Virus record (IMG/VR): IMGVR_UViG_3300025594_000021 | Coordinates: 1 to 37,534 of that record | Strand: one strand, 5' to 3' | Origin: a virus | Length of the DNA: 37,534 bases | Shown here: positions 7,930-36,946 of the stretch, piece by piece | How positions within the stretch are numbered: the stretch's first letter is position 1 | Layout of the letters: every line of letters begins with the position of its first letter | Made by a program: the position numbers and the translations under genes | The notes under the pieces: model-generated | What the model was told of the DNA's origin: nothing | Database searches by the model: none | Seen by the model: the letters and a program-made list of their open reading frames with translations, nothing else

Positions 7930-8433
7930 ATGACCGTGACCTCCGAAATCTATGCGCAGATCAAGGCGCGCCAGACGGCCGCGCCCGATCTCGGGCAGGC
8001 CTCCGCCGAAATCAGCGCCGGCATCGCCGTCAAGCTGGGGGCCGGCACGCTCGCCGGCCAGGCCGACCGGATGTGGTCCGACGAGCGCACGCTCGCCGCC
8101 TCCGCGACCGAAAATCTCGACCTCGCCGGCGTCCTGAGTGACATCTTCGGCGCGGCGGCCAGCTTCGCCAAGGTCAAGGCAATCATCGTGGTCGCGGCTG
8201 CGGCCAACGCCGGCGACATCGTGCTTGGCGGCGCCGCCTCGAACGGCTTCGTCGGCCCCTTCGGCGCTGCCGCCCATACCGTCGCGGTGCGGCCGGGCGG
8301 CGTCGTCCTGCTGGCGGACGCCGCCGGCGGCTGGGCTGTCGCGGCGGGGACTGGCGATCTGCTTAAGGTCGCCAACGGCTCCGGCTCGGCGGCCGGAACC
8401 TACAAGATCATTGTGCTCGGCACCTCGGCGTGA
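7930..8433 (+). CDS. conserved-looking virion protein, function unknown
   Basis: 167 residues. The N-terminal part is Ala-rich (EIYAQIKARQTAAPDLGQASAE); the rest looks like a small beta-sandwich, ending VRPGGVVLLADAAGGWAVAAG...AGTYKIIVLGTSA. I do not recognise a family. Lying between two connector genes and overlapping the next gene by four bases (GTGA) makes a structural role likely, perhaps a head decoration or a head-tail joining accessory. No signal peptide or membrane segment is present. Confidence 0.55.
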   Translation: MTVTSEIYAQIKARQTAAPDLGQASAEISAGIAVKLGAGTLAGQADRMWSDERTLAASATENLDLAGVLSDIFGAAASFAKVKAIIVVAAAANAGDIVLGGAASNGFVGPFGAAAHTVAVRPGGVVLLADAAGGWAVAAGTGDLLKVANGSGSAAGTYKIIVLGTSA

Positions 8434-8777: not shown

Positions 8778-9424
8778 TGGTCTTGCAGTCGGCGTTCATG
8801 CTGTATCAGGGCTACAAGCTCAGTCAGGACGCGGCGAAATATGGCCGGGCCGGGCTCGACGCGCTGGCGCTTTTGCGCACGCCCGGCCTGCAGGGGCTGC
8901 GAACGCTCGGCGGCTCGGCGATCGAGATCGTCGGGCTCGACAACCTGATCGGCTCGCTCGTCAAGCATGGTGTCAGGCTCGCTTTCGGCTCGCGCAACGT
9001 CGACGCCGGCGCCATGGACGAGATGCTGGCCCTGATGCGCGAGCGCGTGCCGCGCGACACCGGGCGGTTGTTCAACGGGATCTCCGGCGAGATCGACGAT
9101 GACGGCATCGCCACGGTGACGGCCTCGGCCGTTCGCGACAACGGCTTCGACTATGCCTTCCTCGTTGAGCACGGCACCAAGGCCGGCGTGCGTGGCAAGG
9201 CCAGCCAAGTCGCCGACGCAAATTACTTCGATGTCAACCTCGTCGACGGCACGGCGCAGCGCCGCAGGCCAAGCCGGCGCTCGACCCGGCGCAGCGGGCG
9301 CACCCATCCGGGCACGCCGCCGCAGCCGTTCTTCTTCAACTCGGCGCGCGAGGTCCTGGCCGAGCGGCAGCAGCGCCTCGAGGATGCGGCCGAGCGCGCG
9401 GCCGAAGAATCCGGATTGGCCTGA
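8777..9424 (+). CDS. neck/tail completion protein, HK97 gp10-like
   Basis: 215 residues. The ATG at 8777 overlaps the preceding stop (TGATG); the longer in-frame reading to the left overlaps two genes and is rejected. The core motif PRDTGRLFNGISGEI...YAFLVEHGTKA...PQPFFFNSAREVLAERQQRLE is the gp10-like signature. The first 70 residues (MVLQSAFMLYQGYKLSQDAAKYG...) are an extra helical extension not usual in the family's short members. A basic, Arg/Ser-rich insert (RRRPSRRSTRRSGRTH) precedes the C-terminal helix and could contact DNA or the connector. Confidence 0.8.
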   Translation: MVLQSAFMLYQGYKLSQDAAKYGRAGLDALALLRTPGLQGLRTLGGSAIEIVGLDNLIGSLVKHGVRLAFGSRNVDAGAMDEMLALMRERVPRDTGRLFNGISGEIDDDGIATVTASAVRDNGFDYAFLVEHGTKAGVRGKASQVADANYFDVNLVDGTAQRRRPSRRSTRRSGRTHPGTPPQPFFFNSAREVLAERQQRLEDAAERAAEESGLA

Positions 9425-10078: not shown

Positions 10079-10525
10079 ATGGCCGAACCCGATCTGCTGC
10101 CGGGCAACCGCTTCCGGCTCTATCGCGAGAGCGATATCACGCCGGGCACCTTCCTCTTCGTCTGCGTCGCGACGACGATCACCTTCAATCGCACGAACAG
10201 CTTCGAGGACACCACGGTCGCCGATTGCGACGATCCGACCGCGATCCCCAACCGCAAGTCGGTCAAAACCTCGACGGCCTGGAATCTGAACTTCTCGGGA
10301 AACTCGGACATCAAGCGGATCGAGGGCATCGAGACCGATTTCGAAGCCGAGGGCACGCATCGCTATCAGATGCTGCTGGACAAGCCCGCCGCCGATGGCG
10401 GCCGGACCTATACCGGCGCCGTCTTCGTCGAGACCTTCGAACTGGCCAAGCAGAATAACGGCCTCGTCACCTTCTCGGCGCAGATGCGCGGCGACGGCGA
10501 AATCGACCGGGCGGCCGTGGTCTGA
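10079..10525 (+). CDS. major tail tube protein
   Basis: 148 residues with ribosome site GAAAGGAT. Beta-rich sequence with FRLYRE, FLFVCVATTITFNRTNSFEDTTV, the WNLNFSGNSD strand and a TGAVFVETFELAKQNNGLVTFS hairpin; this is the tail-tube fold of siphoviruses. It polymerises around the tape measure. The gene stands between terminator and tail assembly chaperone. It lacks an extra Ig-like domain that many tube proteins carry. Confidence 0.85.
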   Translation: MAEPDLLPGNRFRLYRESDITPGTFLFVCVATTITFNRTNSFEDTTVADCDDPTAIPNRKSVKTSTAWNLNFSGNSDIKRIEGIETDFEAEGTHRYQMLLDKPAADGGRTYTGAVFVETFELAKQNNGLVTFSAQMRGDGEIDRAAVV

Positions 10526-11079
10526 TGATGGCGGTGGCCTCGACCACGATCCGCCGGGAGTTCGCGGGGCGAGAGCGCGATTTCCGCCTGGCGATCGGCG
10601 AACTCGGCGCGCTGGAGCGGGTCTGCGGCGCGGGCATCGGCGCGATCGCGCTGCGACTCATAGGACACCAGTTCTATGCCGCCGACATATGGGAGACGAT
10701 CCGACTCGCGCTGCAGGGCGGGGGCCTCGCCGAAATCGATGCCTCGGCGATCGTCCGGGGCTTTCGTGAAGGGCCGATTGGGGAAGAGTGCGTCCAACTT
10801 GCCAACGAGATTGTACTCGCTTCCCTCTGGGGAGCGGAGGCCGCCGATGCCAGTCGCAAGAAAGCGGAGACCGATGCGGCAATCGGCGATCTCAAGGCGC
10901 TCTACCGTCTCGGCGGAGCGATGGGCCTCGATCCGCGCCGTGTCGACGCGCTGACGCTCGGCGAGATGAAGGTGATGTTTGAGGGCTTCGCCGCCATGCA
11001 TGGCGGTGGTGAGACGGGTATCAGCCGCGAGGAGTACGAGGATGTTCTCGCCGAGGAGATCGCGGCCGGACGCGGTTAG
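10525..11079 (+). CDS. tail assembly chaperone, two-part
   Basis: 184 residues; start overlaps the tube stop (TGATG; a second ATG follows at 10528). The N-terminal 100 or so residues (FAGRERDFRLAIGELGALERVCGAG... FREGPIGEECVQLANE) match the gene-transfer-agent type of tail chaperone. After an Ala/Lys linker, residues about 122-165 (DLKALYRLGGAMGLDPRRVDALTLGEMKVMFEGF) resemble the separate small chaperone that follows in such clusters. In lambda-like phages the two parts are joined by a programmed frameshift; here they appear fused in frame. Family placement is confident from location; the fusion reading is inference. Confidence 0.75.
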   Translation: MMAVASTTIRREFAGRERDFRLAIGELGALERVCGAGIGAIALRLIGHQFYAADIWETIRLALQGGGLAEIDASAIVRGFREGPIGEECVQLANEIVLASLWGAEAADASRKKAETDAAIGDLKALYRLGGAMGLDPRRVDALTLGEMKVMFEGFAAMHGGGETGISREEYEDVLAEEIAAGRG

Positions 11080-11118
11080 GCCGACGACTTTGCTTTATGG
11101 CAGCAGTAGACGCAGAGC

Positions 11119-11481
11119 TTACAGAGGCGATCCTGCTTCCGCTCGCATCGAGGAACAGCGCGCATCGTCAGTTCCATTTGGAACGATGAAAAGCAAAGAT
11201 TTTAGCAGCGCTTTTCCGGGCTCTACCTCTCCTTTCGCAATATTATAATCCTTCTTGATGACAATCTTATTGCGAAGGAATTCGCATTGAATGTGTATAT
11301 TTCTCAGCCAAAATTTTGATCGATTAAGAACCGATAGGTCTAGCATCACGACAGTCGGTCTCATCAAATGTAAGTCTTGAACGTGAACTTCGACCGATCG
11401 CACGGCTTCTTCTATCGGCGATTGCGCCAACGCACAATCTGCCAAAGTCAACACGCAAAAGCTCAGTAGAATTCGCCTCAT
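11119..11481 (-). CDS. reverse-oriented secreted protein (moron)
   Basis: 120 residues. The ATG at 11481 is chosen because GGAGG lies eight bases upstream on the minus strand and because the protein then opens with a clear Sec signal peptide (RRILLSFCVLTLADCALAQ, predicted cut after ALA). The mature part is about 100 residues, mixed charge, with two Cys and no recognised domain. LADC is not a good lipobox because Asp precedes Cys. The gene is much lower in G+C than its surroundings (lines 11221 and 11281 count 37% and 35%) and opposes the late operon between chaperone and tape measure. That is the profile of a moron expressed from a prophage, perhaps for surface change or superinfection exclusion; the function is unproven. 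Confidence 0.78.
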   Translation of the reverse strand: MRRILLSFCVLTLADCALAQSPIEEAVRSVEVHVQDLHLMRPTVVMLDLSVLNRSKFWLRNIHIQCEFLRNKIVIKKDYNIAKGEVEPGKALLKSLLFIVPNGTDDARCSSMRAEAGSPL

Positions 11482-11504
11482 TACAACAACCTCCAGAGTG
11501 TTAA

Positions 11505-13469
11505 ATGGCGCAAGCTTTAACAATTCGGTTCGGAACCGACGTGAGTGGTGCCCAACGGGGCATGGCCGATCTCGCAAGCGCGGTCGCCGGCAACATGGCG
11601 AAGATTTCGACCACCATGCTTGCCGCCGGTCGCAATGTCGATCAAGGCCTGCTTGCGACGGTGGCGCGCACGACGGCTAGCGTTACGGCAATGCAGTTAG
11701 CTCTGGCCGGCGGTGTTCTTGTGGGTTTTGCGGGCCTTGGAAAAGCTATCGCTGATGCCAGCGAACAGCTCGACCGATTTGTCGAACTAGGCGCACGAGC
11801 TTCAAACCTCAACTTAGACGTTGAATCGTATCAGCGTTTTGTCGATGCCCTCGGCGGCGGCAAGGAAGCCCTTGCCTCATTGGAAAAGGGGTTGAGTGCC
11901 GTCAAGGAGAAATTTGGCGAGATCAGCAAGGTTCGGAGCTTACTCGGAGAGGTTTTCTCAAGTGGCTATACAGGCGATTTCGTCTCGCAAGGGCTGCGTC
12001 AGTTTGATTCTGCGGCCGATGATAAGGGGCGGCTTCGGGCGGCTGTAGTCGCGTTGCGCGAAATTCAGGATCTGGGGCTGAGTCTCGCTGCAACAAAGTT
12101 GAGCGAGCAGCTTTTCAGCCCGGAGGTCGCCGCGCGCATAGCGCAAGGCAAAACCGACGTAAGCGAAATCCTGGCCAGGATGGACGGCGCCAAGGGCGTC
12201 GAGATTATCTCAGCAGAAGATGTACGGCGCGCCGAAGAACTCAAGGATCGAATTGAAAAGGCAAAACAGGCGATTGCTGACGCGGTCTCCGCCTCCTTTA
12301 GCTTCGCCGGCGCAGGCGAGGTTGTGTTGAAGGTCTGGGCTGGAGTGCTGGAAACGGTGGCGAAGGTCGCCGGCGTCATCAAAACGTTCTCGACGTTCCA
12401 GCCCGCCAATCTCGTCAATCAGCAGATCACGTCGCTGGAGCGGCAGCTTCAGAACAGTGTCGGTGAAAACCCAGTCCGTCGTCGTGGCATGGAGGAGCAG
12501 CTTCGGAAGCTTCAAGGCCAGTCGATGCTTCAGGCCGACGCAAATCCCGCTATTCCATTTGGTCCGGATAATTACCAGAGCAGCCTGCCTGTCCCGAAGC
12601 CACCTAGGCAGCCGCCCGACATTGGCTCCATCCGCGCCGGCTTTGCCAAGAAAGCCGGCGGTGGCGGCGGCGGCTCGTCGGGCGAAGGGCTCGACCAGAT
12701 CGAGCGCTTCATTTCTCAGCTCGAGCGCGCCCGCGACGTCGCCCAGGCCGAACTGGACAATATCGGCAAGTCGAATGTCGAGCGCGAAAAGGCGATCGAG
12801 TTGGCGAAAGCCGCCGCCGCCGCGCGCGCCGCCGGCCGTGATCTGACCGAAGAGGAGCGCACCAAGATCCTGCAGCTCGCCGAGGCGCAGCAGGTCCTGA
12901 AGAACCGGATCATGGATGTCCGGCAGGCCCAGGCCGGCGCGGCCGAGGCGATGCGCTTTTTCGGCGACGCGGCGGCGGACGCCCTCGGCTCGATCATCTT
13001 CGACGGCGGCAAGGCCAAGGATGTCCTGCGCAATCTCGCAAAGTCCTTCGGCAAATCCGGCCTGCAATCTCTTTTCACCGGCCAGGGGCCGCTGGCCTCG
13101 ATCCTCGGCCTCGCTCCGAAGGCTTCGGACGGCCCCAACGCGGTCGGTGGTCTTGCCGGTCTGCTGGGCAGCTTCTTCAAGGCCGGCGGCGGCGACGTCA
13201 CTGCAGGGCGGGCCTACACCGTCGGCGAACTTGGCCGCGAACTCTTCGTGCCGTCGCAAAACGGCACGGTGATGCCGATCGGGCGCGGCGGCGCGGGGGC
13301 CGCTGGCGGCATGACCGTTTCCCCGACCTACCACATCTCGGTCGGCGGCAATGTCAGCCAGGCCGAGCTGATCGCCGTGCGCCGGCAGGTCGAGGCGGCG
13401 CAGCGCAGCCTGCCGCGCAGCGTCCAGACCATCATGCGGCAGACCGAACTCAGGGGCACGAGGGGCTGA
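11505..13469 (+). CDS. tape measure protein
   Basis: 654 residues. It sets tail length and is ejected into the host with DNA. N-terminal helices include a hydrophobic stretch (MQLALAGGVLVGFAGLGKAIADA, about 66-88); the C-terminal part has the familiar KAGGGDVTAGRAYTVGELGRELF motif followed by a Gly-rich tail. By the rough rule of 1.5 angstrom per residue the tail would be near 100 nm. Base composition changes inside the gene: the first 360 or so codons are about 50-60% G+C, then near 12600 it returns to the high level of its neighbours. The start has only a poor ribosome site and lies 23 bases from the start of the divergent moron. Confidence 0.9.
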   Translation: MAQALTIRFGTDVSGAQRGMADLASAVAGNMAKISTTMLAAGRNVDQGLLATVARTTASVTAMQLALAGGVLVGFAGLGKAIADASEQLDRFVELGARASNLNLDVESYQRFVDALGGGKEALASLEKGLSAVKEKFGEISKVRSLLGEVFSSGYTGDFVSQGLRQFDSAADDKGRLRAAVVALREIQDLGLSLAATKLSEQLFSPEVAARIAQGKTDVSEILARMDGAKGVEIISAEDVRRAEELKDRIEKAKQAIADAVSASFSFAGAGEVVLKVWAGVLETVAKVAGVIKTFSTFQPANLVNQQITSLERQLQNSVGENPVRRRGMEEQLRKLQGQSMLQADANPAIPFGPDNYQSSLPVPKPPRQPPDIGSIRAGFAKKAGGGGGGSSGEGLDQIERFISQLERARDVAQAELDNIGKSNVEREKAIELAKAAAAARAAGRDLTEEERTKILQLAEAQQVLKNRIMDVRQAQAGAAEAMRFFGDAAADALGSIIFDGGKAKDVLRNLAKSFGKSGLQSLFTGQGPLASILGLAPKASDGPNAVGGLAGLLGSFFKAGGGDVTAGRAYTVGELGRELFVPSQNGTVMPIGRGGAGAAGGMTVSPTYHISVGGNVSQAELIAVRRQVEAAQRSLPRSVQTIMRQTELRGTRG

Positions 13470-14188
13470 TGCGGCGCTTGATCGACTGGCCGCGCGACCT
13501 GCGCTGGCAGAGCCGCGAACCGTTGACCGGGCCGCGCACGGCCGGCTCGGGCTCCAGCGAGGGGCTGACCGGGTTCATGCAGAGTTTCGCCTCGCCTTTC
13601 GGCTGCTGGCGCTGGTCGTTTGCGTTCCCGCCGCTCAAGGGCGAGGCGTTCCGGCGCTATCGCGGCGCGGTGCTGGCCTTGCACGGCGGCGCCAATGCCG
13701 TCCGCGTGCCGTTCTGCGATCCCGACGGCCTCGGCTGGGCCGGCCTCGGCGTCGTGCTCGGCGGCCTGCGCCCGCAGGACGGCGCGCCCTGGACGAACGG
13801 CAGGCCCTGGAGCAACGGCCGCAACTGGCGGCTCGGCCGACCCGTGGCGCCGCTGGCGCTGCCGGCGCTTCGCGGCGATGTGGTCGTCGCGCTCGCCGAT
13901 GTCGCCTGGGGCCATCGCCTCGGTCTCGGCGACATGCTCGGCTTCGCGCCGTTCCATTTTGGGCTCTATTTCGTCACCGAGGCGCTGGGCGAAGGGCGCT
14001 ACCGGGTCTGGCCGCCGCTGCGGCGCGCGCTCGCGGTCGGGGATGTCGCCACGCTGACCCCGGTGCTGGCGATGCGCCTCGAAGGCGAGGGCGGCGCCTC
14101 CGCCGGGCGCGGCGCCGTTAGCGCCGACGGGTTGACGATGACGCTGGCCGAGATCGAGGACGCGGATATCCGCGACTTCTACCAGTGA
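13469..14188 (+). CDS. distal tail-type protein
   Basis: 239 residues; start overlaps the tape-measure stop (TGATG). Sequence FASPFGCWRWSFAFPPLKGEAFRRYRG, PWTNGRPWSNGRNWRLG and a C-terminal LTMTLAEIEDADIRDFYQ are seen. In this family of phages and in gene transfer agents the gene after the tape measure encodes the distal tail protein or an equivalent that starts the tail tip, which is the basis of the call. Homology to a named family was not established by eye. Confidence 0.65.
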   Translation: MRRLIDWPRDLRWQSREPLTGPRTAGSGSSEGLTGFMQSFASPFGCWRWSFAFPPLKGEAFRRYRGAVLALHGGANAVRVPFCDPDGLGWAGLGVVLGGLRPQDGAPWTNGRPWSNGRNWRLGRPVAPLALPALRGDVVVALADVAWGHRLGLGDMLGFAPFHFGLYFVTEALGEGRYRVWPPLRRALAVGDVATLTPVLAMRLEGEGGASAGRGAVSADGLTMTLAEIEDADIRDFYQ

Positions 14189-15168: not shown

Positions 15169-17355
15169 ATGCTCAGACTCGCCCTGCTCTCGACGGCGGT
15201 GTTGTTTGCCACGCCGGCGCTCGCCGAGCCGATCTCGTTGACCCTGCTCGGCGTCAACGCGCTGCTCGGCACCTCGCTCACCGCCTCGACCGTGATCGTC
15301 GGCACGCTCACCGTCGGCCAGGCGATCGGCACCGCGCTTGTGGTCGGCGCGAGCCTGCTCGCCAGCGCCTTCAACCGGCCTGGCAAGGCGCGCGGCGCGA
15401 TCGATCCGAGCGCGGCGCGCAGCACCTTCGAGACCTCGCAATCGGGCGAGATCCGCTGCGTCGGCCGGGTCAGGATCGGCGGCGTCAAGCTCTTCGGCAA
15501 CACCGCGCTGCTTGATCGCTGGCGGCTGATCGGCCATTGCCGGGGTCCGATCTCGGGTGTGGAGGAGCATTATCTCGGCGGCAAGGAGGTCATCGTCGAG
15601 ACCGACGGCCGGGTCTCGACGCCGCCTTACCGCAACGAGGCCGGCTCCTATGTCTACATCTACAACAAGCCCGGCTTTGACTCGGAGATCTCCTGGCCTG
15701 GCCTGATCGCCGCCTTCCCGCAGCAATGGACGGCGGCGCACCGGGTCCGTGGCATCGCCCAGTCGGCGATCCGCTATGTTTCGCCCGGCCTCGGCAACAC
15801 CATCGCGCAGGAAAAATTCCAGCAGCTCTACCAGTCGGGGCCGCCCGAATACGAGCGCGTCCAGCGCGGCGAGCTGATCTACGATCCGCGCACCGGCTCC
15901 TCGGCCTGGTCGGATAACGGCGTCCTCGTCGTCCTGCACATCCTGCTCGGCTTTCCCGAGTTCGAGCTGGCCGATTTCGACGTCGGCTTCATCGGGGACG
16001 AAGCCGACAAGGCCGACGAGGCGGTGCCGACGCGCTTGGGTCTCGAGCCGCGCTCGCGCGCCTGGGGCCTGTGGGACGACGCCGAAACCAATCGCGGCGA
16101 CCTGCTCGGGCAAGTCCTGCTCTCGACCGGCTGCGAGCTTGTGGCGCGGCCGGGCGACCTGATGGGCATTCGCCTCGTCGATGACGTGCGCGAACCCGAG
16201 ATCACGATCGCGACTCGCCACATCGTCGATTTTACCCTGAAGGCCGGGCCGGACGGGGTCGAGCGGCCCAACCGCTGTCGGGTCAAGTACTACTCGCCGG
16301 AGCGCAATTTCGACATGGCGGAGATCCATCTGGTGGCCGACCGGGCGGTCGTGCCGGCGGTGCCGCTGGCCTGGTCGGTGGCGCAGGCCGAGATCGACCG
16401 GGTCGGCGAACGCTCGGTCGAGTACAGCCTGCCGTTTTGTCCGTCGGCGGCGCAGGCGCAGCGCATCGCGCGCCGGCTCTTCGCAACGGCCCGGGCCGAC
16501 AGCGGCATCGCCCAGACCAACATGGCAGGCCTCGCCTGCTGGGGTTTGAAAACCGTGGCCTTCGAGGTCGCCGATCTCGATCTGGTGCTGTCATGCGAGG
16601 TCCAGCCGGCGCGTGTCGACGACGAGGCCGGTCGCGTCGAAATTCCCTTCGTCGTCCTGCCCGCGTTGAGCGCCTGGAATGTCGGCGTCGACGAGGCGCT
16701 GCCGCCCGACGACGTGCCGGACATGCAGTATTTCAGTCAGGAGGTCGCGGCCCCGACATCGCCGCCGAGTCTGATCACGGTGGTGCTCTATCCGATCGCG
16801 GCGACCTTTGAGACCCGCGTCGGCTTCCCCAGCATTCCCGGCGGCCTGTCCTATTACGAGGCGGTGTTCCGGCGACTGCCCGGCGGTTTGCCGACGACAT
16901 GGCAGGGGCTCAACGCCGAGAGCCTGCCCTATGCCTGGGCGGCCGGCTCGCTCGTCGGGCAGGATATCGAGATACGCTACCGGCTGTTCGATCTCGATGT
17001 GAACCCGACGCCGTGGTCGCCGATCCTGGCGAGCCAGCCGACGATCGACAATACGCCGCTCCCCGCGCCGAGCATCAGCGCGGTGCTGACGCTTGACGAG
17101 CCGGACGGCAACGAAGCGACGATCACCGTGACGGCGCCGTCGCTGATGCGCGTGGCCGGCCTGACCTTCACCGGCATTGGCGCGCCAGGGCTGGTCGACG
17201 CCAGGCCCGGCCAAGTCTTCACATGGACGGCGGCCTTGCCGAACCGCAACGCCGAGATCCAGATTTTCACGTTCACGGCGACCGCCCTGACCAGCAACGG
17301 CACGACTTCGCCCGTCGGCTCGGCAACCGTGACCCTCGAACTCGTCTCAGGATAA
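15169..17355 (+). CDS. tail tip attachment (J-like / gp15-like) protein
   Basis: 728 residues. It is the central tail-tip protein contacting the host. The N-terminus is unusual: LRLALLSTAVLFATPALAEP is a textbook Sec signal peptide, followed by a second hydrophobic Gly/Ala segment (about 45-70, VGTLTVGQAIGTALVVGAS). Then come J-like landmarks: IDPSAARSTFETSQSGEIRCVGRVRIGG, LGGKEVIVETDGRV, YDPRTGSSAWSDNGVLVVLHIL and the R-R-L-F segment in QAQRIARRLFATARADS. The C-terminal third is beta-rich, Thr/Ser-rich and fibronectin-like. It follows the previous stop by one base. Confidence 0.85.
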   Translation: MLRLALLSTAVLFATPALAEPISLTLLGVNALLGTSLTASTVIVGTLTVGQAIGTALVVGASLLASAFNRPGKARGAIDPSAARSTFETSQSGEIRCVGRVRIGGVKLFGNTALLDRWRLIGHCRGPISGVEEHYLGGKEVIVETDGRVSTPPYRNEAGSYVYIYNKPGFDSEISWPGLIAAFPQQWTAAHRVRGIAQSAIRYVSPGLGNTIAQEKFQQLYQSGPPEYERVQRGELIYDPRTGSSAWSDNGVLVVLHILLGFPEFELADFDVGFIGDEADKADEAVPTRLGLEPRSRAWGLWDDAETNRGDLLGQVLLSTGCELVARPGDLMGIRLVDDVREPEITIATRHIVDFTLKAGPDGVERPNRCRVKYYSPERNFDMAEIHLVADRAVVPAVPLAWSVAQAEIDRVGERSVEYSLPFCPSAAQAQRIARRLFATARADSGIAQTNMAGLACWGLKTVAFEVADLDLVLSCEVQPARVDDEAGRVEIPFVVLPALSAWNVGVDEALPPDDVPDMQYFSQEVAAPTSPPSLITVVLYPIAATFETRVGFPSIPGGLSYYEAVFRRLPGGLPTTWQGLNAESLPYAWAAGSLVGQDIEIRYRLFDLDVNPTPWSPILASQPTIDNTPLPAPSISAVLTLDEPDGNEATITVTAPSLMRVAGLTFTGIGAPGLVDARPGQVFTWTAALPNRNAEIQIFTFTATALTSNGTTSPVGSATVTLELVSG

Positions 17356-30425: not shown

Positions 30426-30905
30426 CTAGAACGGGATGTCGTCGTCGAGATGGGAGGTCGCGCGGCTGCCCTGCTCGGTCCTGCCGGGCTCTGATCGAGC
30501 GGGCTCGCGCGTGCGGGTCGAGCCATAGGAATCGGGATCCGGCGCCGGCCGCTCGGCCGATTCGAGCATGGTCAGCTCGCCGCGGAAGCGCTGCAGCACG
30601 ATCTCGGTCGAGTAGCGATCGGCGCCGGCCTGGTCCTGCCATTTTCGGGTCTGCAGCTGGCCCTCGACGTAGATCAAGGCGCCCTTCTTCAGGTACTGCT
30701 CGGCGACCTTGGCTATACCCTCATTGAAGATGACGATCGAGTGCCACTCGGTCCGCTCCTTCTTCTCGCCCGATTGCTTGTCGCGCCACGTTTCCGACGT
30801 GGCGATGCGCATACTGACGACAGGATCGCCATTGCCAAGGCGCCGGGTCTCGGGATCGCGGCCGAGGCGGCCGATCAGCTGGACCTTGTTGAGACTGCCG
30901 GCCAT
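30426..30905 (-). CDS. ssb: single-stranded DNA-binding protein
   Basis: 159 residues. The OB-fold reads clearly: SLNKVQLIGRLGRDPETRRLGNGDPVVSMRIAT, EWHSIVIFNEGIAKVAEQYLKKGALIYVEGQLQTRKWQD. A disordered Arg/Pro/Ser linker leads to an acidic tip ending DDDIPF, the motif by which bacterial SSB recruits partner proteins. So it is a full-length SSB that could use host replication and repair partners. Its start overlaps the previous stop. It is the only clear replication protein in the operon. Confidence 0.95.
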   Translation of the reverse strand: MAGSLNKVQLIGRLGRDPETRRLGNGDPVVSMRIATSETWRDKQSGEKKERTEWHSIVIFNEGIAKVAEQYLKKGALIYVEGQLQTRKWQDQAGADRYSTEIVLQRFRGELTMLESAERPAPDPDSYGSTRTREPARSEPGRTEQGSRATSHLDDDIPF

Positions 30906-31738
30906 CAGGCAGCCCTCGACGGGAGAGTGCGCCGCAGATAGGCCTCGATCTCCGTCGCCAGGACGCGCCAGCGCAGCGCGCCCTTCTGGACCGGCGTCGC
31001 CTGCATGCGCGCGAAGGCTGCCGGCAGGTCGAATTCGTCGAGGACGTCGAGCTGGTCGGGGTGGTCGCGCAGCAGCGGGTCCTGCTCGAAGACGGCGCAG
31101 TAGGCGGTGATGATGCCGGCGCGGACCATGCCGATATTGCCGTCGCCGGCCTTGACGATCGCCTGGAGCGCGGCGGTCAGCGTCGCGTCGCCATAGAGCT
31201 CGGCGAGCTTGTAGATGGTGTTGACGGCCAGCGTCTCGCCGCGGCCCATGTCAGAGGCCGCCTTCATGTCGGCGATCGTGACGCCGGCGGAGTCGCAGAT
31301 CGCCTGGATGCGCAGCGCCGCCTTGTCGCCGGCGGTGACGCGGGCCTTGTGCAGTACGGCCGGGCGCACAGCGAGCTGGCGGGTGTTGATCTCGGTGAAG
31401 GCCTCGGCCTGCTCGGCCTCGTCGACGATGACGACCATGCAGGGCACGGACTTGATGTTGCGCAGCCTGGCGGCATGGCAGCGGTGCTGGCCGTCGATGA
31501 TGGCATAGAGCCCGCCCTCGACCGGGGCGACGATCACGGGGGCGAAGCGCGACCAGCGGAAGCGCTCGGCAATGCGACGGATCTGCTGGCGGCCGCGCTG
31601 GCTCAGCGGTCTCTGGTAGCGATCGTCCATGCGTAGGACGTCGAGGCCGAGCCATTGCGTCTGCGGGGGGGGGCCGGGATGGGTGGTGAAGGCGATGCCG
31701 GCGAAGCCTTCGATGTCGATCTGGCGGAGCGCGTCCAT
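30905..31738 (-). CDS. ParB/Srx-fold protein with DGQHR motif (DUF6551-like)
   Basis: 277 residues from the ATG at 31738 overlapping the big ParB stop; a longer reading to the right overlaps that gene. DDRYQRPLSQRGRQQIRRIAERF then IIDGQHRCHAARLRNIKSVPCMVV is the ParB N-terminal/DGQHR layout, in which the DGQHR loop binds nucleotide. EINTRQLAVRPAVLHKARVTAG follows as in DUF6551 proteins. The rest is helical. Role unknown; candidates are DNA binding, nicking or partition-like clamping. Sits between SSB and the large ParB. Confidence 0.78.
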   Translation of the reverse strand: MDALRQIDIEGFAGIAFTTHPGPPPQTQWLGLDVLRMDDRYQRPLSQRGRQQIRRIAERFRWSRFAPVIVAPVEGGLYAIIDGQHRCHAARLRNIKSVPCMVVIVDEAEQAEAFTEINTRQLAVRPAVLHKARVTAGDKAALRIQAICDSAGVTIADMKAASDMGRGETLAVNTIYKLAELYGDATLTAALQAIVKAGDGNIGMVRAGIITAYCAVFEQDPLLRDHPDQLDVLDEFDLPAAFARMQATPVQKGALRWRVLATEIEAYLRRTLPSRAA

Positions 31739-33873
31739 CACGCGGCCTCCGCTTCGTCGGCCGGCTGGGCCAGCAGCAGCGCAATCATCTGATTCTTGCT
31801 CTTGCCGAAGGGCACTTTGATGCCGCGCGCCTCGAACTCCGCCCGTACGCCGGGTGTTTTCATGTCTTGAAGGCGGGCGCGCTCCTGGTCCTGCCAGATG
31901 CCCTGCGCCGCCTCGGCCGCGCTCTGGTGCTGCTCGGCCGGGGGCTGCGCTTCCGCCGCAGCCTCGGGCTCGGCGGTGTCCGCCGGCTCGGCCGGGGTCT
32001 CGATTGCGGCGAAAACCTCGCCGCGCAGCAGACGCGGCAGCCAGTTGTTGGCGATCGCCAGCCGGGTCGCGACCGCGCCGAGATCGGCCTTCTTGAGCTT
32101 GGCGTGTTTCGCCGGCTCGTCGCCGCAATCGGCGATGGCCGCGAGCGCCTCGGGCTTGGGCGCGGCCGAGAAGTAGGCAGCCGGGTCGAAGGCCTGGACG
32201 AGGGCGGCGCGGTGCTTCTCGACCGGCAGGGCGCAGCGCAGATCGGTGACGGCTTCGGGCTTGAGCGGATAGGAACTCGCAACCGCCTTGCTGGTGAAGT
32301 CGAGGCCGCGCGCAAGAACAGCCGCGACCAGCCCGTGGAGATCCGCGTCAGGCAAGGCCAGGCAGTGGCGGAAAACCAGACCGATATCCGCACGGGGGTG
32401 TGCGTTGCGATCCCAGGGCAGTTCCGGCCCCTGCCTTGCTCCTTCGAGCGCAATCTTGAGCGGCGCTCCCCTGCAGATGAAGCCGCTCACCATGGCCGCG
32501 AAAGCGATGCGCGGTTCGCCGGCGAGGACATGGGCGGCGGCCCGCGTTGCGGTCAACGCGAGATCGTCGAGCAACACGGCCGACAGGCGGGTCGGTTCCG
32601 GCGCCTCAACCTCGCCGTCCGGCGGCGGGCTCTTCGGCGCCGCCATGGCGGTGCGCGGCTCGGGCTTCGCATCAGGCTTGCCCTTGATGAAACCGCGCGC
32701 GATCGAGAGGGCGCCATCATGACCGACGGCGACGATGGCGATGGCCTTGGCGCGGCGCGCTTCGGGCAACGTCAGCCATGCGGCGCGGTCGTCGTCGTAG
32801 GCGGCGTGTTCCAGGCTCAACGGAGCGCGCTCGGCCTCGAGCGCATCCTGCTCGGCGAGAAGGACGGCGATCTCCGGCGTCGGCTCGACCTCGTCGTCGA
32901 AGCCGGCTTCCTCGAGTTCACCCTCAATCTCCTCTGCCCTGGTGTCGATCTCCTGTAGACGGGTCTCGATTTCGATCCGGCGCGGCGGCTTGGCCTGGGC
33001 CAGGGCGGCCGGCTTCGTGATACGTTGCCAACGATAGCTGTCGCTGGCAGCCGCGCCGAACAGGACCTCGCCCCAGCCTTCGGCGTGCTTCAACGCCGCG
33101 GCTTCGGCCGCAAGCTTCTCATCGGCCAGGCGCGTCAACAACCCGCCATCGGCAAACTGGCGCTTGTCGGCGAAAAGATCGGCGACCATTTCGCCGCCGG
33201 CGGCACGATAGGCTTCCTCGCCCACAAAGAGGGCTGCGCCCCGGTCGGCCGGCACGGCCGCATGCGTGAAGGCGTGTCGGATGGCGTAAGGTTCAAGGCT
33301 CCGACGGTCGCCCTTGGCGAGATAGGCGGCCTGGTCGGACGGTGAGGCGAGGGTGAAGGCCCGCGCCGCGTCGCCATTGATCCGGCCTTCCAGCCAGGCC
33401 TTGCGCACGTCCGGATGCAGCCGGCCGAGCGCCTGACGCTGTTCGACCTGGCGCAGGGTGATGCCGAAATGCGCGGCGATGTCGTCGTTCGTCTTGCCGC
33501 GCTCGGCCAGCGAGGCGAAGGCTTCGTATTCCGCGACCGGGTGCAGCGGCTTGCGCAGGATGTTGGCGGCGAGCGAAATCTCGAAGGCGTCGGCGTCGGG
33601 CTCGGGATCGCGCAGCACGACGTCGACCCATTCGATGGTCGCGACGTCGGCGGCGTCATCCTGCGCATCGATCTGGTTGAGCGCGGCGAGGCGGCGGTTG
33701 CCGTCGATGATCTCGATCTTGCCGTCGTCGCGCTTGCGGCCGACCAGCGGCTGCAGCAGGCCATGGGCGCGGATCGACGCGACGAGGTCGGCGACGTCGT
33801 CCTGCCCCGGTCGGACGTTGATGGCCACGCCGGCGGCGAGTTCGTTGAGGCGGTAGGCGACGACCCCTGTCAT
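31738..33873 (-). CDS. large ParB/RepB/Spo0J-like protein
   Basis: 711 residues. The N-terminal 190 residues are a ParB clamp-type domain: LNELAAG...NVRPGQDDVADLVASIRAHGLLQPLVG, IIDGNRRLAAL (GxRR motif), LAANILRKPLHPVAEYEAF (NxxR...P.E motif) and a helix-turn-helix NDDIAAHFGITLRQVEQRQALG. The acidic middle (about 310-370) looks coiled coil; the C-terminus (about 675-705, MKTPGVRAEFEARGIKVPFGKSKNQMIALLLA) resembles a SAP/HeH DNA-binding motif. Long ParB proteins of this kind are known from alphaproteobacterial plasmids and ICEs. No ParA partner is present in the window. Predicted CTP-dependent DNA clamp; function in the phage unknown. Confidence 0.85.
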   Translation of the reverse strand: MTGVVAYRLNELAAGVAINVRPGQDDVADLVASIRAHGLLQPLVGRKRDDGKIEIIDGNRRLAALNQIDAQDDAADVATIEWVDVVLRDPEPDADAFEISLAANILRKPLHPVAEYEAFASLAERGKTNDDIAAHFGITLRQVEQRQALGRLHPDVRKAWLEGRINGDAARAFTLASPSDQAAYLAKGDRRSLEPYAIRHAFTHAAVPADRGAALFVGEEAYRAAGGEMVADLFADKRQFADGGLLTRLADEKLAAEAAALKHAEGWGEVLFGAAASDSYRWQRITKPAALAQAKPPRRIEIETRLQEIDTRAEEIEGELEEAGFDDEVEPTPEIAVLLAEQDALEAERAPLSLEHAAYDDDRAAWLTLPEARRAKAIAIVAVGHDGALSIARGFIKGKPDAKPEPRTAMAAPKSPPPDGEVEAPEPTRLSAVLLDDLALTATRAAAHVLAGEPRIAFAAMVSGFICRGAPLKIALEGARQGPELPWDRNAHPRADIGLVFRHCLALPDADLHGLVAAVLARGLDFTSKAVASSYPLKPEAVTDLRCALPVEKHRAALVQAFDPAAYFSAAPKPEALAAIADCGDEPAKHAKLKKADLGAVATRLAIANNWLPRLLRGEVFAAIETPAEPADTAEPEAAAEAQPPAEQHQSAAEAAQGIWQDQERARLQDMKTPGVRAEFEARGIKVPFGKSKNQMIALLLAQPADEAEAA

Positions 33874-36018: not shown

Positions 36019-36264
36019 ATGGGTATCGCGTTTAAGGTCTACGTCCGCTGCACCAATTGCCGGAAGGATTACGGCTGCAGGCTGGAGCCGCCCGCAGCCG
36101 ATGATGCGCCGGCCGATATCGACGAGCTGCTGGAGAGCCAGTACCTGCAGGAGCAGCGCTTCACCTGTCGCGACTGCGACTGTCCGATCGGCGCGGTGAC
36201 GGGGGTCAAGCTGCTGGTCGACGACCAGGTCGAGAGCGTCAGGATACTGGAACCCTGTTCTTGA
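36019..36264 (+). CDS. small zinc-ribbon protein in the immunity region
   Basis: 81 residues, ribosome site GGAGG. CTNCRKDYGC near the start and CRDCDCPIG in the second half give a CxxC/CxxC metal-binding pair; the rest is acidic and helical. It is transcribed towards the repressor and their 3' ends overlap by 26 bases. Such small ribbon proteins could be regulators or DNA-binding partners; no specific family recognised. Confidence 0.65.
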   Translation: MGIAFKVYVRCTNCRKDYGCRLEPPAADDAPADIDELLESQYLQEQRFTCRDCDCPIGAVTGVKLLVDDQVESVRILEPCS

Positions 36265-36946
36265 TCTCGCGGACCAAAGCCAGAATGCGGACCTCGCGGC
36301 CATCATCGGGTTGAAGATTGCGTGGCACCACGATCGGCTTGTGGCGGGCATTGCTTGAGCGCGGGTGGAAGACCACGACGTCGTCCTGCAGCTCGACCTG
36401 CTTGACCGACCACTCGCGGAGCTGCCCGCCATCGCGCTCCTGCTGGACGACGACCACCATGTTGTCGCGCAAGGGAATGCCGATATCATCGTAATCGACG
36501 CCGATGACGCGCGAGCCCGGCAGGATCGGCGACGGCTCTAGCCGGTTCATCGAATCGCCAATGACATCGTAGGCCGTGCGCCGGGCGCGCGGGAAATCCG
36601 GATCGGCCGGCTCGTAGAACAGCTCCGGCTCGCTCTGGTCGAACTCGTCGATCGGGATGAACGAGCCGGCCTGAACGGGGCCCGCTACGACGACGGGCAA
36701 GAGTCGCCCTTCGGGCGCCGGCATGGCCTCCGGCCTCAAACGTAGATCCACGCCGGGCATCGCAGGCGGGGCCTCGTCGATGTAGCTGGCGATCACGGGC
36801 AGTTCCTCGACCTTGATCGCCCTGGTGCCGTTCAAGATTTTGGTCACGGCCGAGCCGGTTTTGCCGATGGCGTGCGCCAGGCCGCCCTTGGATTTGCCAG
36901 GCTTCCCAAGTCCAGTTTTTACCCACAGGCGCAGCTCGTCGTTCAT
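36239..36946 (-). CDS. phage repressor, XRE-type with S24 peptidase domain
   Basis: 235 residues from ATG 36946; a longer TTG start at 37009 is rejected as it would run through the promoter. Residues about 20-56 (GGLAHAIGKTGSAVTKILNG) are the HTH. The C-terminal S24/LexA-like domain has the likely self-cleavage site Ala93-Gly94 in VQAGSF, the Ser132 nucleophile in VIGDSMNRL and Lys182 in WSVKQVEL. It should therefore be a RecA-sensitive repressor, inactivated after DNA damage. It lies between the two matched promoters it probably controls. Confidence 0.9.
   Translation of the reverse strand: MNDELRLWVKTGLGKPGKSKGGLAHAIGKTGSAVTKILNGTRAIKVEELPVIASYIDEAPPAMPGVDLRLRPEAMPAPEGRLLPVVVAGPVQAGSFIPIDEFDQSEPELFYEPADPDFPRARRTAYDVIGDSMNRLEPSPILPGSRVIGVDYDDIGIPLRDNMVVVVQQERDGGQLREWSVKQVELQDDVVVFHPRSSNARHKPIVVPRNLQPDDGREVRILALVREIKNRVPVS

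What the first reader, a model, noticed from the sequence alone, without database searches (positions are those of the whole stretch)
11080..12600. Reverse-oriented secreted moron beside a chimeric tape measure gene
A low-G+C, minus-strand gene with a Sec signal peptide and a perfect ribosome site sits between the tail chaperone and the tape measure, opposing the late operon. Lines 11221 and 11281 count 37% and 35% G+C. The lower-G+C tract continues into the first ~360 codons of the tape measure and stops near 12600. The simplest reading is that moron plus tape-measure N-terminus arrived together. Its secreted product has no recognised fold, so it may be a new host-surface or exclusion factor, and being on the opposite strand it could be expressed from the prophage.
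Basis: partly seen in the sequence, partly recalled or inferred. Interest (0 to 1): 0.72.

Follow-up and report, generated by a model that had tools for sequence, protein, structure and literature searches.

The report
Swappable exported genes beside tape measure
Opposite the tail genes of this temperate phage sits a small gene for an exported protein, and related phages of alphaproteobacteria carry unrelated exported genes, or none, in exactly that slot, which suggests a swappable site for proteins that a dormant phage may use to shield its host from other phages.

Summary
The gene is real: window 11119-11481, minus strand, 120 aa, SD GGAGG 8 nt before ATG, Sec signal peptide. It fills the gap between the tail assembly chaperone (TAC, ends 11079) and the tape measure (TMP, starts 11505). 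G+C and GC3 drop from 11080 to about 12590 as claimed. The protein has no relative in any library searched.

The main result is comparative. Reverse-strand genes with an N-terminal signal peptide or membrane helix occupy the same slot in 15 other, not near-identical phages or contigs, including Rhizobium phages 16-3 (unannotated), X2_25, TM3_3_14B, Y3_1 and N28_2 and Paracoccus phages Pthi1 and Pben1. Their products fall into about 11 unrelated groups. Phages with related TMPs carry unrelated slot genes or an empty slot, so the slot is an exchangeable cassette site. HK97 has its known exclusion moron gp15 at the same place, on the other strand.

Best explanation: a prophage-expressed envelope moron, most likely superinfection exclusion acting on TMP-mediated DNA entry. 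That function is inferred. Joint arrival of moron and TMP N-terminus is not excluded here, but in relatives the two are separable (L055 versus L065). No good promoter was found in the window itself.

The parts
11119..11481 (-). Slot gene (moron): 120-aa secreted protein of unknown family, G+C 45.5%
   Evidence: no significant match in Pfam, PHROGs, NCBIfam, PADLOC, PDB, phages, plasmids, viral or genome contigs
11490..11494 (-). Shine-Dalgarno GGAGG, 8 nt before the ATG
   Evidence: sequence
11425..11481 (-). Predicted Sec signal peptide, residues 1-19, cleavage ALA|QS
   Evidence: own hydropathy and cleavage-site scan; no dedicated signal-peptide program was run
10525..11079 (+). Tail assembly chaperone, GTA-gp10 type (left border of the slot)
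   Evidence: PF11836 E 1.8e-17, phrog_8985
11505..13469 (+). Tail tape measure protein, 654 aa (right border of the slot)
   Evidence: phrog_10574 E 2.6e-26; L055 TMP 43% over residues 398-654
11505..12590 (+). Low-GC3 N-terminal part of the tape measure gene, no detectable relatives
   Evidence: GC3 and homology break
13469..14188 (+). Distal tail protein
   Evidence: phrog_1302; 76% to L055
28042..29289 (-). Tyrosine integrase (temperate lifestyle)
   Evidence: phrog_1 E 1.3e-13
36239..36946 (-). CI-like repressor (temperate lifestyle)
   Evidence: phrog_4 E 8e-10, HTH_3

Best explanation
The gene is an exchangeable, prophage-expressed moron in a fixed slot between the tail chaperone and tape measure genes. 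Its product is exported to the periplasm. Most likely it, like the unrelated exported proteins that take its place in relatives, interferes with DNA entry of superinfecting siphophages, the step that the tape measure protein carries out across the envelope. Shown: the gene, its export signal, the fixed slot, exchange of unrelated exported genes in the slot, and temperate hosts. Inferred: expression in the lysogen, superinfection exclusion, and the target.
For: Slot: reverse-strand genes sit between TAC and TMP in the window, L005, L008, L012 (contig ends before TMP), L026, L040, L055, L063/L064, Pthi1, Pben1, X2_25, TM3_3_14B, 16-3, Y3_1, N28_2 and RcapNL. Geometry is tight: the 3' end is -37 to +40 nt from the TAC stop, and the ATG is 22-62 nt from the TMP start in most. 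A blind minus-strand scan of 99 TMP loci finds 6 strict hits within 70 nt of the TMP start (5 independent) against 0.107 expected. Annotated phages not picked by moron similarity: 4 of 17 slots against about 5 of 230 other junctions, p = 0.0016 (the 230 is an estimate). Export: all 16 have an N-terminal hydrophobic segment against 19 of 161 small plus-strand genes (some of the 16 were found by this criterion). Exchange: unrelated slot genes or an empty slot next to related TMPs. Promoter-like matches lie 15-36 nt before the slot gene's ATG in 12 of 16 filled against 4 of 16 empty slots. Occupied phages checked (window, N28_2, TM3_3_14B, Pthi1) have integrase and repressor genes. HK97 gp15, a superinfection exclusion moron, sits in the same slot; [quoted passage not shown] A membrane nuclease also targets TMP at injection (PMC13190303).
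Against: There is no functional or expression data. The window's own best promoter-like match is no better than shuffles (p 0.72), and no terminator was found for the gene. The product has no relatives, so function rests on position and export alone. The same TMP type pairs with unrelated or no slot genes, so a cognate TMP partner is not indicated. The phages with empty slots include a Sinorhizobium prophage (phi3LM21). RcapNL's slot product has only a borderline hydrophobic segment.
Confidence: 0.5

Rival explanations
1. The slot holds general lysogenic-conversion morons: exported proteins that help the host envelope or fitness in other ways, with no role in phage exclusion. The slot is used because the TAC-TMP junction tolerates insertions.
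For: Product diversity is wide (two-helix membrane proteins, a Cys-rich peptide, soluble secreted proteins). HK97 also carries morons, one of them reverse, at another tail junction.
Against: Near-uniform envelope targeting and the position beside the protein that makes the injection path suggest a narrower role; gp15 in the same slot is an exclusion protein.
Confidence: 0.3
2. Moron and TMP N-terminus entered the window's phage together as one imported segment and form a cognate pair.
For: One continuous low-G+C tract from 11080 to about 12590, and a TMP N-terminus without relatives.
Against: The gene (GC3 0.47) and the TMP N-terminus (0.50-0.72) differ in composition. In relatives the two are separable: L055 filled and L065 empty with 72% identical TMP N-termini.
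Confidence: 0.2
3. The reverse gene is mainly regulatory: its antisense transcript or convergent transcription tunes TAC and TMP expression.
For: Four slot genes of different phages have the offset of a 4-nt convergent overlap with the TAC stop (L055, X2_25, 16-3 by sequence; Y3_1 by coordinates).
Against: The products keep signal peptides or membrane helices and ribosome sites; a regulatory RNA would not need them. Empty slots are common.
Confidence: 0.07
4. Not a gene: a chance ORF in a low-G+C spacer.
For: No homologue found anywhere searched.
Against: 0 of 5000 shuffles give such an ORF with SD and signal peptide; position and layout match the other 15 cases.
Confidence: 0.04

Closest known systems
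Escherichia phage HK97 gp15 (superinfection exclusion moron)
   Same: Small gene in the same slot between the TAC frameshift pair and the TMP (8203-8391) in a temperate siphophage; envelope-targeted; acts on DNA injection (PMC10883804).
   Different: gp15 is on the late-gene strand with a putative terminator, is 62 aa and is a predicted inner-membrane protein; the window gene is on the opposite strand, 120 aa, with a cleavable-type signal peptide and no terminator found; no sequence relation was found.
Streptococcus phage TP-J34 Ltp / lactococcal Sie2009
   Same: Envelope-located exclusion proteins that block DNA injection; TMP is the reported target of Ltp (PMC10883804 and its reference list).
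   Different: Gram-positive hosts; Ltp is a lipoprotein. The window protein has no lipobox.
P22 SieA
   Same: Prophage-expressed envelope protein that blocks DNA delivery (PMC10883804).
   Different: Inner-membrane protein of a short-tailed phage aimed at ejection proteins; different protein type and locus.
Reverse slot genes of Rhizobium phages 16-3, AP-16-3, NV1.1.1, Y3_1, N28_2, X2_25, TM3_3_14B and Paracoccus phages Pthi1, Pben1
   Same: Same slot, same orientation, exported or membrane product, alphaproteobacterial phages.
   Different: Proteins unrelated in sequence to the window's; annotated only as hypothetical, those of 16-3 and Pben1 unannotated in the records read.

Membership tests
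Moron element | Extra gene between genes that are adjacent in relatives | tested here: met
   Empty slots with gaps of -11 to +18 nt between TAC and TMP in L065, L067, phi3LM21, Rivra, Susan, Shpa, ppBdUSDA122-1
Moron element | Base composition differs from the phage | tested here: met
   45.5% against 67.7%, lowest in the record; slot genes are below their locus in all 13 other listed cases
Moron element | Own promoter | tested here: inconclusive
   Group signal in 12 of 16 filled slots, but the window's match is weak
Moron element | Own terminator | tested here: not met
   No terminator-like site between gene end and TAC; several relatives overlap the TAC stop
Moron element | Expressed from the prophage | not testable with these tools
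   No transcriptome available
HK97 gp15-type exclusion protein | Position between TAC and TMP | tested here: met
HK97 gp15-type exclusion protein | Inner-membrane protein | tested here: not met
   Window product has only a cleavable-type signal peptide and no helix after it
HK97 gp15-type exclusion protein | Blocks DNA injection of related phages through TMP | not testable with these tools
   Needs an infection assay
Ltp-type lipoprotein exclusion protein | Lipobox with Cys | tested here: not met
   LADC, with D before Cys, does not fit a lipobox; by inspection

The most novel reading that the evidence does not exclude
The TAC-TMP junction of temperate alphaproteobacterial siphophages is a dedicated exchange slot for reverse-strand exclusion genes: unrelated exported proteins, each driven by a promoter squeezed between its ATG and the TMP start codon, are swapped in and out while the TMP stays, so that reading this slot predicts the exclusion repertoire of a lysogen.
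Probability: 0.35. Interest if true: 0.78.

Novelty: new variant of a known kind. Interest (0 to 1): 0.62.

Why it matters
Superinfection exclusion proteins are often small and unrelated in sequence, so they are hard to find by homology. If this slot is dedicated to them, position and orientation alone would point to new exclusion proteins in prophages of Rhizobium, Sinorhizobium, Paracoccus and other alphaproteobacteria, including a gene left unannotated in the classical temperate phage 16-3. It would also make the question of how TMPs pass the envelope testable with a set of natural inhibitors.

Tried and rejected
Homologues of the window protein: none by profile, BLAST or pattern scans. Resemblance to the X2_25 slot protein (both have N-[IV]-x-I-x-C-x-F): not significant, 210 of 2000 shuffles score as high, BLAST none; rejected as evidence of homology. 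Structure of the full protein: pLDDT 38. Mature protein: one of five models at pLDDT 60, others below 40, six beta strands; fold searches gave no significant match, so no fold is claimed. Weak NCBIfam hits (E 0.055) were taken as chance. Minus-strand candidates in L015, L070 and L116 look like shadow ORFs of plus-strand genes and were dropped.

Full report
What was checked. The ORF at 11119-11481 (minus) is real and as described: ATG, GGAGG 8 nt upstream, signal peptide, low G+C. Shuffles of the gap never give such an ORF with SD and signal peptide (0 of 5000). The G+C and GC3 step in the TMP near codon 360 is real, and the N-terminal 362 residues have no relative in 164 loci whereas the C-terminal part does. 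That count for the C-terminal part is inflated, because many of these loci were fetched with it. The record is a viral contig identical to the window. It carries an integrase and a CI-like repressor, so the phage is temperate.

Relatives. The capsid finds many related prophages and contigs, and the tail block from Dit onward finds one contig, L055. L055 also has a minus-strand gene with AGGAGG and a signal-like N-terminus between TAC and TMP, unrelated to the window's. This led to a wider look. Blind scans and gap inspection found further cases in L005, L008, L012, L026, L040, L063/L064 and Paracoccus phage Pben1. Published annotations show them in Pthi1, RHph_X2_25, RHph_TM3_3_14B and RcapNL. 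Phage 16-3 has an unannotated one, annotated in AP-16-3 and NV1.1.1, and its relatives in RHph_Y3_1 and RHph_N28_2 lie in the same slot. L012's is related to it (E 2e-9), but the L012 contig ends before its TMP.

Strength of the pattern. On 99 TMP loci, a fixed scan for minus-strand ATG ORFs with SD and a hydrophobic N-terminus finds 6 within 70 nt upstream of the TMP start and 18 in the rest of 1.17 Mb, 0.107 expected. Two of the 6 are near duplicates, and two (window, L055) prompted the search; leaving these aside, three independent cases remain against 0.1 expected. In 17 annotated phages not chosen by slot-gene similarity, 4 have an annotated reverse gene in the slot, against 5 in about 230 other structural junctions (p 0.0016; the denominator is my estimate of about 14 junctions per phage). 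All 16 slot proteins have an N-terminal hydrophobic stretch against 12% of small plus-strand genes; several were found by that very feature, so the unbiased part is Pthi1, X2_25 and TM3_3_14B (clear) and RcapNL (borderline).

The slot is an exchange site. By BLAST the 16 proteins form about 11 groups. L055, L064 and L065 have related TMPs (L065 is 64% identical to L055 and 55% to L064 over nearly the whole length) but carry a secreted 77-aa gene, a two-helix gene and nothing. L008, L026, TM3_3_14B and X2_25 share a TMP N-terminal type with L067; the first four carry unrelated genes and L067 none. Pthi1, Pben1 and Rivra repeat this. In empty slots TAC and TMP nearly touch. So the slot gene changes while the TMP stays, against the idea that the two always move together. 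In the window itself joint arrival remains possible.

Expression. A simple sigma-70 score gives better matches before filled slot genes than at the same place in empty slots (Mann-Whitney p 0.001), with the -10 ending 15-36 nt before the ATG in 12 of 16. In several cases the -35-like TTGCCA appears to be the reverse complement of the TMP start (ATGGCAA or GTGGCAA); the same hexamer occurs in two empty slots, so part of the signal may come from that. The window's own match is weak. Whether the gene is expressed in the lysogen is not known.

Function. HK97 gp15 lies in the same slot and excludes superinfecting phages at DNA injection; HK97 hybrids with another phage's tail tube and tape measure escape it, and TP-J34 Ltp is overcome by TMP changes (PMC10883804). 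TMP contacts inner-membrane proteins during injection and is a target of a membrane nuclease defence (PMC13190303). An exported product in this slot therefore most likely acts on DNA entry. This is inference from place and export; none of the slot proteins here has been tested as far as I found. I found no paper describing the reverse slot genes among those searched; the library lacks most subscription journals, so this is weak evidence of novelty. It is filed as a new variant of a known kind (tail-region moron), not as a gp15 family member, because inner-membrane nature and strand differ.

Noticed in passing
L147:5113-5280 (-), Rhizobium phage 16-3 record 9037-9204: Unannotated 55-aa membrane-protein gene opposite the TMP, 42% to L012's and 44% to RHph_Y3_1's slot genes.
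   Followed up: yes
L040:16550-16741 (-): Slot gene for a short secreted Cys-rich peptide (about 8 Cys after the signal peptide).
   Followed up: no
L058:20177-20596 (-) and L062:19494-19913 (-): Paracoccus phages Pthi1 and Pben1 share a second reverse secreted gene (MKLAPMLLTALxVAxFGSAPAxADPGRGHGKGG) near the lysis genes.
   Followed up: no
L154:2256-2567 (-), Rhodobacter phage RcapNL: A second reverse gene with a signal-like N-terminus between head-tail genes.
   Followed up: no
L055:7867-7870, L148:3954-3957, L147:5113-5116: TAC and slot gene stops overlap in a CTAG palindrome in unrelated slot genes.
   Followed up: partly
window 15169-17355 (+): The large tail protein (81% to L055) starts with a signal-peptide-like stretch (LLSTAVLFASVTPALA), odd for a virion protein.
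   Followed up: no
window 30905-33873 (-): Two adjacent ParB-domain proteins (277 and 711 aa) beside an SSB in the early region.
   Followed up: no
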